DNA of 43,159 nt from an uncultured Acetatifactor sp. (GTDB lineage: Bacteria > Bacillota > Clostridia > Lachnospirales > Lachnospiraceae): assembly GCA_947627535.1 (NCBI GenBank), contig CANQWM010000024.1:1-43159 (forward strand), in the 5' to 3' direction. The translations under genes and the position numbers were made by a program. The notes beneath the pieces are model-generated. The model had not been told where the DNA came from and did not search any database. It saw only the letters and a list, made by a program, of their open reading frames with translations. Of this stretch, positions 1 to 43,159 are shown piece after piece (position 1 is the stretch's first letter; each line of letters opens with the position of its first letter).

Positions 1-1847
1 CGGGAATCTTCCGACTTCGGCTTGTTGTAGTTCTCCCGCTCAATGATACCGCACTTCCGCTTCACTTGTGCGATATAAAGGTGGCTGACCTTAATCCCGA
101 ATTTCTCCAGCACATACGCCTTGATTTCCTCGTAGCTGGCTTTCTTCTCGGCGGCGGTCAAATCCATCTCGTCCATCGTCAATTCGACCTCGATATGTTG
201 CTTGACATTGAGTTTGGACAATAAGCACACCGTCTCCACATGCACCGTCATTCCAAACTGGTCCACGCCCCTTACCCTTTTAATCTCGTACCCGCCCTCG
301 CAGAGAATCTTTAAATCTCTTGCCATCGTCGCAGGGTCACAGCTCACATACACGATCCTCTCCGGCCCCATCCGAAGCATTGTATCCAGGCAGGCCTCAT
401 CGCAGCCTTTTCGGGGCGGATCCACAACAATGACATCCGGATGAAGAAATTCCTCGTCCCTAGTTATAACATGCCCCATTTCACCTGCGCCCTTTTCAGC
501 CGCCCCATCGCCCGCCGCGCTAAAACCGGCACGAAATCCCCGCTCCGTACAGGACCCGGAAATCCCGCTCTTTTGGGCATAAAATTCCGGCAGTATTTCC
601 TCGGCCTTCCCTGTAAAAAATTCCGCGTTGGCAATCCCGTTCCGCCTTGCGTTTTCCCTCGCGTCTTTGATGGCCTGGGGAACGATCTCCACGCCGAAGA
701 CCCTTTTCGCCCATCCTGCCAGAAACAGGGAGATCGTACCGATACCGCAGTAGAGATCCCACACCGTCTCCCTGCCGGACAGTCCGGCATATTCCAGCGC
801 AAGACTGTACAGCTTTTCTGTCTGTATGGGATTTACCTGATAAAAGGAAAGCGGTGAAATATGGAAGGTCAGTTCCCTCCCTGTAAAGGGAAATCCCGGC
901 CGGCTCATGTCCCTGACATGAATGGTATCGGAAATCGTGGGGCTTCCCCATATCGTATAGACCTCGTCTCCCATGATTACGTTTGTCCGCTCTGTATTGA
1001 TGTTGACTGACACACTTGTCATTCCTTTTACCGCGGCCAGTTTTCCCAGTAATTCACCCTGTTCCGGTAAAAAAACACCGTCCTTCTTTAAATGCCCGTC
1101 CTTCTTTGCAGAACCTTTTCCGGCAGAATATGACATATTCGTCGTTTTCTTTCCGGTTGAGTCCTGTGTAAAATTCAGCACCAGACATACCATAATCTCG
1201 CCGCTGGAAAAGCCTTTTCGGATCAGGATATGCCGCACCAGCCCTTTTCCCGTCGTTTCGTCATAGGGGCGGATGCGGTATTTTTTCAAATGCCCCAAAA
1301 TGATTTCAAGAATTTCCCGGTTTTCCTCCGCTCCCAGCAGACAGTCCGTATTTGCTACAATATTATGGGTTCTTCCCGCGTAAAATCCTGCGACTAAATT
1401 TCCCTCCCGGTCGATTCCCACTGGATACTGGGCTTTGTTCCGGTATCGAAACGGTTCTTCCATACCTACAATGGGTTCCATTCTGGCGTCTATATATGCG
1501 GAAGAAAAGCCCCCAATCCGGATCAAGCTGCTGCGGATTTTTTCCTGTTTATATGCCAGCTGCTTTTCATAGGACAGCGCCTGCAGCTGGCAGCCGCCGC
1601 ATTGTCTGTGAAAGACGCATTCTGGCTCCACGCGAAAAGGAGAAGGCGTCACCACCTTCTCTGTCCTCGCGTAAGCATAAGTCTTTTTGTTTTTTACAAT
1701 CCTGGCCCGGACGGTATCCCCCGTTACGGCGTCCTTCACAAACAGCGTGAAGCCTTCCGTCTTCCCGATTCCCAGTCCGTCGGCGCTCATGTCTTCTATG
1801 ATCACCGTAACGATATCGTTTTTCTGAAAATTCATGGTTCCGCTCAT
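1..1847 (-). CDS. rlmD: 23S rRNA (uracil-5-)-methyltransferase, RlmD/RumA type, with C-terminal extension (3' end cut by window)
   Basis: SAM-dependent methyltransferase of the TrmA/RlmD family, expected to make m5U in 23S rRNA. Reading the minus strand from 1847 gives an N-terminal TRAM-like segment, an iron-sulfur cysteine cluster (about C77-x5-C83-x2-C86, with a later Cys in TDCLLG), the SAM motif WDLYCGIGT, VDPPRKGC and the catalytic-cysteine motif YVSCDPATMARD. The last motif normally lies close to the protein end, but here the frame continues about 90 codons past it to the window edge, including VSHLYIAQVKRKCGI and ERENYNKPKSED, a tail I recall from other Lachnospiraceae proteins. Two stretches look like insertions relative to the family: a Lys/Gly-rich loop (about 1060-1170) and a Gly/Ala-rich loop (about 475-580). 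The start at 1847 has GGGAGAAG upstream; a second in-frame ATG lies at 1835. Substrate U1939 versus U747 cannot be decided by eye. Confidence 0.93.
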   Translation of the reverse strand, partial: MSGTMNFQKNDIVTVIIEDMSADGLGIGKTEGFTLFVKDAVTGDTVRARIVKNKKTYAYARTEKVVTPSPFRVEPECVFHRQCGGCQLQALSYEKQLAYKQEKIRSSLIRIGGFSSAYIDARMEPIVGMEEPFRYRNKAQYPVGIDREGNLVAGFYAGRTHNIVANTDCLLGAEENREILEIILGHLKKYRIRPYDETTGKGLVRHILIRKGFSSGEIMVCLVLNFTQDSTGKKTTNMSYSAGKGSAKKDGHLKKDGVFLPEQGELLGKLAAVKGMTSVSVNINTERTNVIMGDEVYTIWGSPTISDTIHVRDMSRPGFPFTGRELTFHISPLSFYQVNPIQTEKLYSLALEYAGLSGRETVWDLYCGIGTISLFLAGWAKRVFGVEIVPQAIKDARENARRNGIANAEFFTGKAEEILPEFYAQKSGISGSCTERGFRAGFSAAGDGAAEKGAGEMGHVITRDEEFLHPDVIVVDPPRKGCDEACLDTMLRMGPERIVYVSCDPATMARDLKILCEGGYEIKRVRGVDQFGMTVHVETVCLLSKLNVKQHIEVELTMDEMDLTAAEKKASYEEIKAYVLEKFGIKVSHLYIAQVKRKCGIIERENYNKPKSEDS

Positions 1848-1892
1848 TCTATGCCGACTTCTCCCGCCCTGTGCGGGCGTCTTTGTCGTCGA

Positions 1893-1926
1893 TCCGGCCG
1901 GCCGGACATGATCCGGACTGTCCGGA
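1893..1926. repeat. GC-rich palindromes between fprA and rlmD
   Basis: The 93-bp gap holds a perfect 14-bp palindrome TCCGGCCGGCCGGA (1893-1906) and, 5 bp further on, TCCGGA-CTG-TCCGGA (1912-1926). Both can form hairpins in the transcript that runs from the flavoprotein gene into rlmD. Neither is followed by a T-run on the minus strand, so a processing or partial-termination role is only a guess. Confidence 0.5.
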
Positions 1927-1940
1927 CGCGCCGTCACTCC

Positions 1941-38384: not shown

Positions 38385-40313
38385 ATGTCTGAGATAAGAG
38401 AAAAAGCAGACGTATGTGTCATAGGAGCAGGGCATGCAGGCTGTGAAGCGGCTTTGGCCTGCGCAAGGCTTGGACTGGAAACCGTCATTTTTACGGTCAG
38501 CGTCGACAGCATTGCTTTGATGCCCTGTAATCCTAATATTGGAGGATCATCTAAAGGGCATCTTGTGAGAGAAGTGGATGCGCTGGGCGGAGAAATGGGT
38601 AAGAATATTGATAAAACATTCATTCAGTCAAAAATGCTGAATGTGTCAAAGGGTCCTGCCGTTCATTCTCTCCGTGCTCAGGCTGATAAGGCGGATTATT
38701 CCCGTGAGATGCGCAAGGTTCTGGAAAATCAGGATCATCTTGTAATCAAACAGGCCGAAGTATGCGAACTGCTGTGGGAGGATGATTCCAATCTGAAAAA
38801 GAAGAAAGTGACAGGAGTCAAGACTTTTACCGGCGCTGTTTATGTATGTAAGGCTGTTATATTATGTACGGGAACTTATCTGCGTGCACGCTGTCTGTGC
38901 GGAGAATCTATTACTTATACAGGCCCTAATGGATTACAGGCCGCGAACCATTTGACAGATTCTCTTGAAAAGATGGGAATTGAGCTTCGGAGATTTAAAA
39001 CGGGCACTCCTGCCAGGATGGACGGAAGGAGTATTGATTATTCCAAAATGGAAGAGCAGCTGGGAGACGAAAGGGTCGTACCTTTTTCTTTTTCTACGGA
39101 TCCGGAATCTGTTCAGAAAGATCAGGTTTCCTGTTGGCTGACATATACAAATGAAAAGACGCATGAGATTATTCGGGCAAACCTTGACAGATCTCCTATT
39201 TACGCCGGAATTATCGAAGGGACCGGTCCGAGATATTGCCCTTCTATTGAAGATAAGGTGGTTAAATTTGCTGAAAAGGAACGTCATCAAGTTTTTATTG
39301 AACCGGAAGGTCTTCATACAAATGAAATGTATGTAGGAGGGATGTCTTCATCGCTTCCTGAGGATGTACAGCTTGCCATGTACCGCACGGTCCCTGGACT
39401 GGAAAATTGTAAGATCGTGAAAAATGCTTACGCCATAGAGTATGACTGTATCAATGCGAGACAGTTATACCCAACTTTGGAATTTAAGAATGTTTCCGGA
39501 CTCTTCAGCGGAGGACAGTTTAACGGAAGCAGCGGTTACGAGGAAGCGGCAGCTCAGGGTCTTGTGGCTGGAATCAATGCCGCCATGTCTGTGCTGGGGA
39601 GAGAACCTTTTCTCTTCGACCGGTCGGAAAGTTATATTGGAGTTTTGATTGATGATCTTGTAACGAAAGATAACAGGGAGCCTTATCGGATGATGACCTC
39701 CAGGGCGGAATACAGGCTGCTTCTCAGGCAGGACAACGCAGATCTTCGTCTGAGAAAAAAGGGTTATGAAATTGGTCTGATCACGGAAACACAGTATCAG
39801 GAGCTTCTGAAAAAGGAAGAAATGATAAAAAATGAGATAACAAGGTTAAAAGAAACTTATGTAGGTGCAAACAGAGAGATTCAGGACTTTCTTATTTCCA
39901 GGGGAAGCACACCTTTAAAGACTGCGGCCAGTCTGGCGGAGTTAATCTGCAGACCGGAGCTTTCTTATGAATCATTGTCTGAAATTGACGCCGAAAGGGT
40001 CATTTTGCCTGAAAATGTTACGGAACAAGTACAGATTGAGATCAAATATGAAGGATATATTGCAAGACAGCTTCGACAGGTTGAACAATATAAGAAAATG
40101 GAAAAGAAATTGATTCCTGTCGATATTGATTATGATAAGGTTTCTTCTCTTCGTTTGGAGGCCAGACAAAAGCTGAAACTTTTTCAGCCGGTCTCCATAG
40201 GGCAAGCCTCAAGGATTTCCGGTGTATCTCCCGCGGATATATCTGTTCTTCTGGTTTATCTTGAACATTATAACAGGAGCCTGATAAGGGAGGATTCGAG
40301 TGAAAGATTATGA
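38385..40313 (+). CDS. mnmG: tRNA uridine-5-carboxymethylaminomethyl modification enzyme MnmG
   Basis: FAD-dependent partner of MnmE, 642 residues. FAD-binding [17 protein letters not shown] at the N-terminus, [31 protein letters not shown] and [14 protein letters not shown] are family signatures; the C-terminal helical domain ends with [25 protein letters not shown] lies upstream. The stop overlaps the GTG start of rsmG by 14 bp. Confidence 0.97.
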
Positions 40314-41022
40314 TACTTCGCAGTTTATAAAAGATCTTACCGCTTTGGGAATTTTCCTTACCGAAAAGCAGATAAAACAGTTTCTCAGGTATTATGAGCT
40401 TTTAACAGAGAAAAATAAAGTTATGAATCTGACTGCCATTACAGAGTTTGATGACGTTTTTAAGAAACATTTTACAGACAGTCTTTCTCTTGTAAAAGCC
40501 TTTGATTTTTCCGGATCGTCTTCTGTAATAGATGTAGGTACGGGAGCCGGGTTTCCCGGACTTGCCATAAAAATTGCTTTTCCGGAGCTTACAGTTACGC
40601 TTTTGGATTCCCTGAATAAAAGGATCCGGTTTCTTGACGAGGTGATTTCCTCGCTGGGTCTTTCCGGCGTAAAGACGATTCACGGAAGAGCGGAGGACCT
40701 TGCCAGATCAGAAGAGTTAAGGGAAAAGTTTGATCTTTGTGTTTCCAGAGCTGTGGCAAACCTTTCTACCCTGTCGGAGTATTGTCTTCCATTTGTCAGG
40801 ACGGGAGGCGTATTTATCTCTTACAAATCCGAAAAGGCGGCAGAGGAATTAGCTGCTGCGGACCATGCTATTACTTTGTTAGGCGGGAATATTGAGAAAA
40901 AGATAGACTTTATGCTGCCTGATTCTAATGTTTATCGCAATCTTGTTGTAGTTAGGAAAATAAAACCGATTTCCGATAAATATCCGAGAAAGGCGGGTCT
41001 CCCTGCAAGGGAACCTCTTTGA
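40300..41022 (+). CDS. rsmG: 16S rRNA (guanine-527-N7)-methyltransferase RsmG
   Basis: SAM-dependent methyltransferase of 240 residues, with the Rossmann motif [17 protein letters not shown] and downstream [14 protein letters not shown]. It uses a GTG start (40300) behind AAGGGAGGA, overlapping mnmG. Loss of RsmG gives low-level streptomycin resistance in other species. The C-terminal 15 residues are an extra basic tail. Confidence 0.95.
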
Positions 41023-41102: not shown

Positions 41103-41422
41103 AAGAGGCGTTTATGATAAAGGATAGTTATTTGATACTTGTTGAAATGGTTTCTTCTTTTAAAAAGACGCTTTCTGATGTTACTGTCAGGATGAATGAG
41201 AATACGCTTTTTATTCGAGAGGAAAAATCCTGCATAAAAGCGTATGAAGATACGGAAGCTGATGATTTCAGAATTTTTTACCCCAGAAAAGACAACACGC
41301 CTGTTCAAAAGGAAGAGGCTGAACGAGCATATGCCAGGATTGCCGCGTATGAAGAAAAAAACAGAAAATTGAATAAAATAAAAACGGATCTTGAAAATAA
41401 GATTGGCCAGTTGGAGAATATA

Positions 41423-41427
41423 TTAAA
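41423..41427 (+). repeat. Target site duplication, left copy
   Basis: TTAAA immediately before the left inverted repeat; identical to the right copy. Confidence 0.85.
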
Positions 41428-41447
41428 CCTAGATTATTCACGACACA
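41428..41447 (+). repeat. IS1380 left terminal inverted repeat
   Basis: CCTAGATTATTCACGACACA; matches the reverse complement of 43063-43082 at 16 of 20 bases. Confidence 0.85.
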
Positions 41448-41539
41448 GCCATGAAAAATGCTGAAAGCCGCATAACTACTGTGTTTTAACTTAATATTGC
41501 TTTTCGTCTATTAAATGAATAAAAAAAGAGCATCCATTG

Positions 41540-41548
41540 TGGTATAAT
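41540..41548 (+). promoter_or_regulatory. Transposase promoter (extended -10)
   Basis: TG-G-TATAAT (41540-41548) with no convincing -35, 45 bp before the transposase ATG. Confidence 0.5.
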
Positions 41549-41592
41549 TAAGGTGCCTAAAGTCATTAATAATACAAACAAAGGAGCTCTTT

Positions 41593-42918
41593 ATGAATAT
41601 TGTAAACACCTTATCTTTAAAAAGCAATAGAAAAATTAAAATAAATTTTCATGGCGGAGATTTATCCTCCGATGCAGGATTGCTTCTTATCAAAGAATTC
41701 ATATGCAGACTTGGTATTGATAAGCTTTTTGGCAAGGCTTTCAAAACCAATGATTCTGCATTATTCAGATATCATACGGATCAGAAAAATCTGCTCCAGA
41801 TGATATATATGCTCATCGCCGGTTATTTCGAGGATGATGCCTCTGATGAACTGACAAATGATCCTGTATTCAAGTCTGTGCTTGAAAAGGATACCCTTGC
41901 TTCACAGCCTACGGTATCAAGATTTTTTAACCGTATGGATGAAGATACCTTAAACCAGTTCCTTACGATTGGCAGAATGCTTCGTAAGAAAATTTACAGT
42001 ATACAGATGCCGCAGGCTGTTATCCTGGACCTGGATTCCACTCTCCTTGATACATACGGTAAGCAGGAAGGCAGTGCCTTTAACTTCCATTATCAGAGCA
42101 ATGGTTATCATCCACTCGTCTGTTACGATGGAATGACCGGGGACTTGATAAAAATCCAGCTTCGTAATGGAAACGAGTATTCCTGTACCGGAGTAGTCGA
42201 CTTCCTGCAGCCGATACTTGATGAATACCTGAATGATTATCCACAAATCAGTATTTTACTTCGCGGTGACAGCGGTTTTGCCACGCCTGAACTTTACAGG
42301 CAGTGTGAGGAAAACGGCACAAGCTATGTAATCCGGCTGAAAGAGAATGGCATTCTCCGCGAAAAAGCGTCTTACCTTGTGGATGAACTTGATGAGATTA
42401 CCAAAAATAATAAAGTCGATTATGCGGCAGTCTATGGCGAATTCATGTACAAGGCAGGTTCATGGCCTTATGAAAGGCGAGTGGTGTGCAAGGTTGAGAA
42501 GCCGGAAAACCAACTGACTTACATGTACACATTTATTGTAACAAACATGGATTCATCACCGGAGTATCTCATCAAATTTTACTGCAGGCGTGGGCAGATG
42601 GAAAACTACATCAAAGAAAGCAAAAACGGTTTTGATTTCGCGTCCGTAAGCAGCCATACCAAAATAGTAAATGCCAACAGGCTTCAGGTACACGCTCTTG
42701 CGCATAACATATTTAATTGGTTTAGACGGCTGGCGTTATCGGCAGACATGCGAAAACAACGCATAGAAACCGTACGTATAAAGCTGCTGAAGATTGCAGC
42801 AAAAGTAATTCATTCAGCAAGATATACCACTTTCAAGCTGTGCAGCAGCTGTCCTTATAAGAATGAATTTTATGAGACACTTTCAAATATTGACAGTCTG
42901 AATGTACAGCTTGAATAG
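41593..42918 (+). CDS. IS1380-family transposase
   Basis: DDE transposase of 441 residues, full length for the family. Catalytic candidates are D146/D148 in ILDLDSTLLDTYG, D226 in LLRGDSGFATPELY and E337 in RRGQMENYIKESKNG. N-terminal ISFHGGDLS-like segment (NFHGGDLSSDAGLLL) and the late NRLQVHALAHNIFNWFRRL are typical IS1380 blocks. AAAGGAG lies 7 bases before the ATG. No frameshift or stop. Confidence 0.95.
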   Translation: MNIVNTLSLKSNRKIKINFHGGDLSSDAGLLLIKEFICRLGIDKLFGKAFKTNDSALFRYHTDQKNLLQMIYMLIAGYFEDDASDELTNDPVFKSVLEKDTLASQPTVSRFFNRMDEDTLNQFLTIGRMLRKKIYSIQMPQAVILDLDSTLLDTYGKQEGSAFNFHYQSNGYHPLVCYDGMTGDLIKIQLRNGNEYSCTGVVDFLQPILDEYLNDYPQISILLRGDSGFATPELYRQCEENGTSYVIRLKENGILREKASYLVDELDEITKNNKVDYAAVYGEFMYKAGSWPYERRVVCKVEKPENQLTYMYTFIVTNMDSSPEYLIKFYCRRGQMENYIKESKNGFDFASVSSHTKIVNANRLQVHALAHNIFNWFRRLALSADMRKQRIETVRIKLLKIAAKVIHSARYTTFKLCSSCPYKNEFYETLSNIDSLNVQLE

Positions 42919-43016
42919 CAGCTATAAACGAACCTTGACAGCAAAACAACTGCACTGAATTCTGCCACAGGGATTTTATGCCCTTTTGACGGATTAATTG
43001 AATGATGTTATGGCTG

Positions 43017-43040
43017 CATGAATCAATTTTCAGATTCATG
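43017..43040 (+). other. Hairpin in the right end of the IS
   Basis: CATGAATC (43017-43024), 8-base loop, GATTCATG (43033-43040), about 100 bp after the transposase stop and 22 bp before the right inverted repeat. No T-run. It may limit read-through. Confidence 0.45.
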
Positions 43041-43062
43041 GTACATTTATCAGTTCAGATAT

Positions 43063-43082
43063 TGTCACGTGAATAATTCAGG
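43063..43082 (-). repeat. IS1380 right terminal inverted repeat
   Basis: Reverse complement reads CCTGAATTATTCACGTGACA, pairing with the left end. Confidence 0.85.
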
Positions 43083-43087
43083 TTAAA
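43083..43087 (+). repeat. Target site duplication, right copy
   Basis: TTAAA directly after the right inverted repeat. Confidence 0.85.
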
Positions 43088-43159
43088 GAATGAAACACAC
43101 TATATTTCTTTGATTAATTTTCAGGAGGAGGATAGAAGAAGGATTGTCAGAGATCTGCA
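43083..43159 (+). pseudogene. 3' fragment of the disrupted sensor kinase gene (continues past the window)
   Basis: In the frame set by the upstream fragment this encodes LKNETHYISLINFQEEDRRR and IVRDL with no stop. The pattern ExxRxRIxRDLH is the HisKA_3 phosphoacceptor helix of DegS/NarX kinases, and the last two bases of the window (CA) begin the codon where the phosphorylated His is expected. The ATPase domain must lie to the right. Confidence 0.75.

What the first reader, a model, noticed from the sequence alone, without database searches (positions are those of the whole stretch)
41114..43159. IS1380 insertion splits a DegS-like sensor kinase; in-silico excision restores the frame
The termini (16/20 match) and the TTAAA duplications are exact, so the pre-insertion allele can be reconstructed. 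Joining 41427 to 43088 gives one continuous frame that runs from the coiled-coil N-terminus into a HisKA_3 phosphoacceptor motif. The strain has therefore probably lost this kinase recently, next to the origin.
Basis: partly seen in the sequence, partly recalled or inferred. Interest (0 to 1): 0.75.

Follow-up and report, generated by a model that had tools for sequence, protein, structure and literature searches.

The report
IS1380 insertion splitting a sensor kinase
A complete IS1380-family mobile element sits inside a sensor-kinase gene near the replication-origin genes of a bacterium that likely belongs to Acetatifactor; it likely switches the kinase off, and the assembly stops at the exact base where it would stop if cells with the uninterrupted gene are likely also in the sample.

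Summary
A 1655-bp element (41428-43082) with 16/20 matching ends, an intact 441-aa IS1380-family transposase and an exact TTAAA duplication splits the gene after rsmG. The left piece (104 residues, then 12 read from the element) and the right piece (23 residues before the contig ends) match one intact 327-aa HisKA_3/HATPase kinase, P0036, at 103/104 and 23/23, with exactly one residue between them. In the genus the gene lies between rsmG and a NarL-type regulator in 29 of 30 loci checked.

Two corrections. The kinase resembles DegS/DesK in layout, but the DegS family model is not met. And 'the strain has lost it' is probably half the story: the contig ends exactly 77 bases after the start of the right-hand duplication; 34 of 106 contig ends of this assembly share terminal stretches with another end, always of 76 or 77 bases; and a k=77 graph of occupied plus empty allele breaks at 43159, the contig's last base. 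So the sample likely holds both alleles. No reads were available, and no partner contig is in the bin. The right-hand neighbourhood (rest of the kinase, serS; probably regulator and soj) is missing from the genome held. An ordinary insertion, likely an unfixed one.

The parts
40300..41022 (+). rsmG (GidB), the gene upstream of the kinase
   Evidence: PF02527, 176.2 bits against a cut-off of 27; upstream of the kinase in 29 of 30 loci of the genus
41114..41427 (+). 5' part of the split kinase gene (104 codons plus two bases), including the left duplication
   Evidence: 103 of 104 residues identical to residues 1-104 of P0036; 61 of 104 to the G005 kinase
41423..41427 (.). left copy of the TTAAA target duplication
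41428..43082 (+). IS1380-family insertion sequence, 1655 bp
   Evidence: ends match 16 of 20; related copies of similar length with the same ends in Lachnospiraceae genomes
41428..41447 (+). left terminal inverted repeat
41428..41464 (+). element sequence read in the kinase frame: 12 foreign residues (the first codon begins with two bases of the duplication), then a TGA stop
41593..42918 (+). transposase, 441 aa, intact
   Evidence: NF033539 over its cut-off; PF13701
43063..43082 (-). right terminal inverted repeat
43083..43087 (.). right copy of the TTAAA target duplication
43088..43159 (+). 3' continuation of the kinase gene, cut off by the contig end just before the phospho-acceptor histidine codon is complete
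   Evidence: 23 of 23 residues identical to residues 106-128 of P0036; 14 of 22 to the G005 kinase
43083..43159 (.). terminal 77 bases of the contig, starting at the first base of the right duplication; predicted meeting point of the occupied and the empty allele in a k=77 assembly graph
   Evidence: length 77; other ends share 76 or 77 bases; graph test

Best explanation
A complete IS1380-family insertion sequence with an exact 5-bp TTAAA duplication interrupts codon 105 of a HisKA_3 sensor-kinase gene after rsmG, which likely abolishes the kinase in the cells that carry it, while the uninterrupted allele likely persists in the same sample. Shown: the element, its ends, the duplication, the matching frame, an intact homologue with one residue between the two pieces, the conserved neighbourhood in relatives, and a contig end exactly 77 bases from the start of the right duplication in an assembly whose contig ends share 76 or 77 bases. 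Inferred: transposition by the element's own transposase into an A/T-rich target; translation stops after 116 residues; the product keeps the N-terminal helices but lacks the phospho-acceptor histidine and the ATPase domain, so it would not phosphorylate the NarL-type regulator, and the insertion may also be polar on that regulator. The assembler would have stopped where the occupied and the empty path meet again.
For: Ends, duplication, transposase. Both pieces match one protein in register. P0036 has HisKA_3 (121-185) and HATPase_c (229-316), both beyond residue 105. Synteny: rsmG in 29 and a NarL-type regulator in 30 of 30 loci. Recent: exact duplication, intact transposase, one copy found in the genome, an intact allele differing at 1 of 128 residues. 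Mixed sample: 77 bases from duplication to contig end; 34 of 106 ends share a terminal stretch of 20 bases or more, always 76 or 77 (as pairs 13 of 77 and 6 of 76 on the same side, 1 and 1 head to tail); graph of both alleles breaks at 43159, occupied allele alone breaks nowhere, an element copy elsewhere breaks at 41504 and 43084. The COBRA paper (PMC10914622, passages) says that such assemblers break where several paths meet and that metaSPAdes leaves end overlaps of maxK.
Against: No reads and no assembly graph were seen. The two-allele graph also branches at 41427, which the contig passes; resolution by read pairs would explain that but was not tested. No contig of the bin shares the last 77 bases, so the predicted partner was not found. 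Six of 19 same-side pairs share 76, not 77, bases, and 7 further ends have their last 70 bases 1-6 bases inside another end, so the overlap rule is not perfect. P0036 is a sequence from elsewhere with one difference, so it does not prove that the intact allele is in this sample. Loss of function and polarity are not measured.
Confidence: 0.75

Rival explanations
1. The insertion is fixed in the sampled strain, and the contig end at 43159 is a coincidence (coverage drop or trimming).
For: The contig passes the left branch at 41427 as if there were no second allele there. No partner end is in the bin.
Against: The end lies exactly 77 bases from the duplication, in an assembly with 76/77-base end overlaps. 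The occupied allele alone gives no break.
Confidence: 0.17
2. The element sits in the population at more than one place, and the break comes from that repeat.
For: Elements of this family are multi-copy in some genomes, for example Lachnoanaerobaculum gingivalis.
Against: One copy found here; a second site would break the contig at 41504 and 43084, not at 43159, and the contig runs unbroken through the element.
Confidence: 0.03
3. The insertion does not silence the system: the element's right end drives a C-terminal kinase fragment or the regulator, making signalling constitutive.
For: A promoter-like pair TTGTCA-18-AAGAAT spans the right junction, 9 of 12. Some IS1380 elements are known to drive neighbours (recalled).
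Against: 8 promoter-like sites found against 6.5 (sd 2.7) in shuffles. By eye the in-frame right piece holds a TTG but no ATG or GTG before the contig ends, and the rest of the gene is not in the genome held.
Confidence: 0.08
4. The junctions are an assembly chimera and there is no insertion.
For: The locus is at a contig end of a draft assembly.
Against: Complete ends, exact 5-bp duplication, and two flanks that belong to one gene in register.
Confidence: 0.02

Closest known systems
IS1380-family insertion sequences of Lachnospiraceae (nearest found: L129, JAUNPJ010000056.1, 90% transposase identity)
   Same: Length 1656 against 1655 bp, same ends, 5-bp A/T-rich duplication
   Different: About 10% protein divergence; other sites; often multi-copy elsewhere, one copy found here
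DesK-type HisKA_3 sensor kinases (B. subtilis DesK)
   Same: HisKA_3 and HATPase core; best solved relatives by sequence (7ssj, E 7.5e-25 with the alignment as query) and by fold
   Different: By eye no hydrophobic membrane segments in P0036; predicted N-terminal helices 2-49 and 62-152 instead (model of modest confidence, pTM 0.45)
DegS sensor kinases
   Same: Soluble-looking kinase with a helical N-terminus and a NarL-type partner (general knowledge of DegS is recalled)
   Different: The DegS model PF05384 is not met

Membership tests
IS1380 family | IS1380-type DDE transposase | tested here: met
   NF033539 397.9 bits, cut-off 180; PF13701 529.5 bits, cut-off 34.7
IS1380 family | Terminal inverted repeats | tested here: met
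   16 of 20
IS1380 family | Short target duplication (4-5 bp, recalled) | tested here: met
   TTAAA on both sides; 25 of 41 related copies have an exact 5-bp duplication
HisKA_3 histidine kinases | HisKA_3 and HATPase_c domains | tested here: met
   Met in the intact homologues P0036 and P0041. The window's own pieces do not reach these domains: no such Pfam match
DegS | DegS N-terminal domain PF05384 | tested here: not met
   0 of 6 genomes over the cut-off, best E 0.03, no match at the kinase locus; 1 of 14 control genomes over the cut-off, not named in the output. No PF05384 in P0036 or P0041 at E<=0.001
DesK | Membrane sensor domain before the kinase core (recalled) | tested here: inconclusive
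   Predicted helices 2-49 and 62-152, hydrophilic by eye; no membrane predictor was run
NarL-linked two-component system | NarL-type regulator next to the kinase | tested here: inconclusive
   Present in 30 of 30 loci of relatives; in this genome the DNA right of the contig end is not held

The most novel reading that the evidence does not exclude
The insertion is a standing polymorphism: kinase-on and kinase-off cells coexist in one sampled population, and the contig's last 77 bases record the point where the two alleles rejoin. If the element also leaves precisely, which nothing here tests, the locus would be an on/off switch of an rsmG-linked two-component system.
Probability: 0.7. Interest if true: 0.45.

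Novelty: new member of a known kind. Interest (0 to 1): 0.3.

Why it matters
Insertion sequences often break regulators (recalled). What is useful here is that the event looks young and was probably caught while still mixed, and that this can be read from the assembly alone: a contig end exactly k bases after a target duplication is a test for unfixed insertions in metagenome bins. It also shows that a bin rated 99.08% complete can lack an origin-proximal stretch: serS, found in 4 of 4 other genomes of the genus tested, is not in it. The intact kinase and its NarL-type regulator sit after rsmG in 29 of 30 loci checked, and a search for papers holding at least four of rsmG, sensor histidine kinase, response regulator, Lachnospiraceae and spo0J found none.

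Tried and rejected
Strict TTAA targeting as in piggyBac: rejected, since duplications of related copies vary (ATTAT, TTTAT, CATAA and others).

A second copy of the element as cause of the break: one match only in the genome held, and the graph test puts such breaks at 41504 and 43084.

Rest of the kinase on another contig: not found; C45 carries a different HisKA_3 protein and NarL-type regulator (25% and 39% identity).

Outward promoter: not above shuffles.

Element on plasmids: 1 of 72,556 records, 6% of the query covered.

Papers: six searches. From 42, 48, 62 and 63 I saw search listings only; none of the titles or abstract starts listed concerns this locus. One search listed nothing. Of PMC10914622 I saw passages.

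The structure model has pTM 0.45 and most of the 50 fold matches listed have rmsd above 7, so only the helix layout and the DesK-like core are used.

Rows dropped before counts: for the duplication count the script got 41 of the 80 loci (39 left out as partial or under 80% identical). One search compared the 120 listed of 3037 homologues. One search used the 30 loci fetched of 49 matching genomes (138 searched). The plasmid and family searches are as stated.

Full report
What is there. The window is a whole contig (C24) of a 2.85-Mb, 53-contig genome rated 99.08% complete. At its right end an element of 1655 bp (41428-43082) has 20-base ends that match at 16 positions and is flanked by TTAAA on both sides. 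Its 441-aa transposase is intact and belongs to the IS1380 family (NF033539 397.9 bits, cut-off 180; PF13701). One copy was found in the genome held.

Related copies. A scan of named genomes kept 80 loci (of 112), up to 90% identical, mostly titled Lachnospiraceae or other Clostridia. I examined 41 of the 80: 25 have an exact 5-bp duplication, 1 a 4-bp one, 15 none (at least 3 of these lack a recognisable end). The 25 are A/T at 116 of 125 positions, with A at position 4 in all 25; TTAAA fits. Of 61 genomes (own and relatives), 3 have a match at E<=1e-40: the own one, an 86% fragment with a stop in the same genus (G006), and a 57% match in another family (G056). I infer a recent arrival from outside the genus.

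What it splits. The ORF after rsmG (41114-41464) has 116 codons, the last 12 read from the element. The left 104 residues are 59% identical (61 of 104) to the start of an intact 324-aa kinase in G005, and the right piece matches residues 111-132 of the same protein at 14 of 22. A search with the G005 kinase gave 3037 homologues; among the 120 listed, P0036 (327 aa, a cluster of 7 sequences) matches the left piece at 103 of 104 and the right piece at 23 of 23 positions, at residues 1-104 and 106-128. One residue falls on the junction, and across the empty site the frame agrees at 127 of 128 positions. P0036 carries HisKA_3 and HATPase_c. The window ends two bases into the codon after RDL, so the histidine (H129 of P0036) is just outside. 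A search for relatives of the 116-aa product found none (11 candidates, none at E<=0.001).

The module in relatives. With a 14-row alignment, 49 of 138 genomes of the genus match at E<=1e-40. Of the 30 loci fetched, 29 have rsmG and 30 a NarL-type regulator in the flanks. In G005 a ParA-type gene (soj by eye; no family model over its cut-off at the limit used), a ParB/Spo0J-family gene and serS follow. The genus is taken as Acetatifactor from the label of P0001, which is 100% identical to the G005 kinase over 98% of its length and lies on a contig of the same length, 114,252 bases. The predicted structure (mean pLDDT 75.8, pTM 0.45) shows helices 2-49 and 62-152, the second running through residue 105 to the histidine. 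The nearest solved structures are DesK. The DegS model is over its cut-off in 0 of 6 genomes, so 'DegS-like' describes the layout only.

The contig end. From the first base of the right duplication to the contig end are exactly 77 bases. Of the 106 contig ends, 34 share a terminal stretch of at least 20 bases with another end, and the length is always 76 or 77: 13 pairs of 77 and 6 of 76 on the same side, one of each head to tail. Seven further ends have their last 70 bases 1-6 bases inside another end. This is the mark of a de Bruijn assembly with k near 77; the COBRA paper (PMC10914622, passages) says that such assemblers break where several paths meet and that metaSPAdes leaves end overlaps of maxK. 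A small graph with k=77 breaks at 41427 and 43159 if occupied and empty allele are both present, nowhere if only the occupied allele is, and at 41504 and 43084 if the element also sits elsewhere. The contig ends at 43159. Against this: the contig passes the predicted branch at 41427 (read pairs could explain that; not tested), and no contig of the bin shares the last 77 bases. I conclude, without reads, that the sample likely holds both alleles.

What is missing. The rest of the kinase is not in the genome held. A relative's regulator finds a different NarL-type protein at best (39%, C45), its soj at best 31%, and its serS nothing, while the same serS query matches 4 of 4 other genomes of the genus at 92-95%. 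The neighbouring contig was likely left out of the bin.

Function, inferred. The 116-aa product lacks the histidine and the ATPase domain and would not phosphorylate a regulator; the insertion may be polar on the regulator. An outward promoter is not excluded, but the match is not above shuffles.

Verdict. Observation confirmed. It is an ordinary, young IS1380 insertion that most likely inactivates a rsmG-linked two-component kinase and is most likely not fixed in the sampled population.

Noticed in passing
G000, right of window 43159: A genome rated 99.08% complete lacks serS, which 4 of 4 other genomes of the genus tested have at 92-95% identity, and lacks a close soj; the origin-proximal contig to the right seems to be left out of the bin.
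   Followed up: yes
G000 contig ends: 34 of 106 contig ends share exactly 76 or 77 terminal bases with another end, so many of the bin's breaks are graph branches.
   Followed up: partly
G000:C45:13743-14955 (L008, L012): A second HisKA_3 kinase and NarL-type regulator pair, only 25% and 39% identical to the G005 pair; the stretch is 57.1% G+C against 47.4% in the window.
   Followed up: no
G006:C1:1995871-1996368 (L127): An 86% identical transposase fragment with a stop in another species of the genus: a decayed relative of the same element.
   Followed up: no
window 3-1937, - strand: A long ORF that looks by eye like an RlmD/RumA-type rRNA methyltransferase runs off the left contig end with a C-terminal extension; possibly a mobile-element insertion site.
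   Followed up: no
L137, L138 (Schaedlerella arabinosiphila), L144-L150 (Lachnoanaerobaculum gingivalis): Close relatives of the element in several copies per genome, with varied A/T-rich duplications or none.
   Followed up: partly
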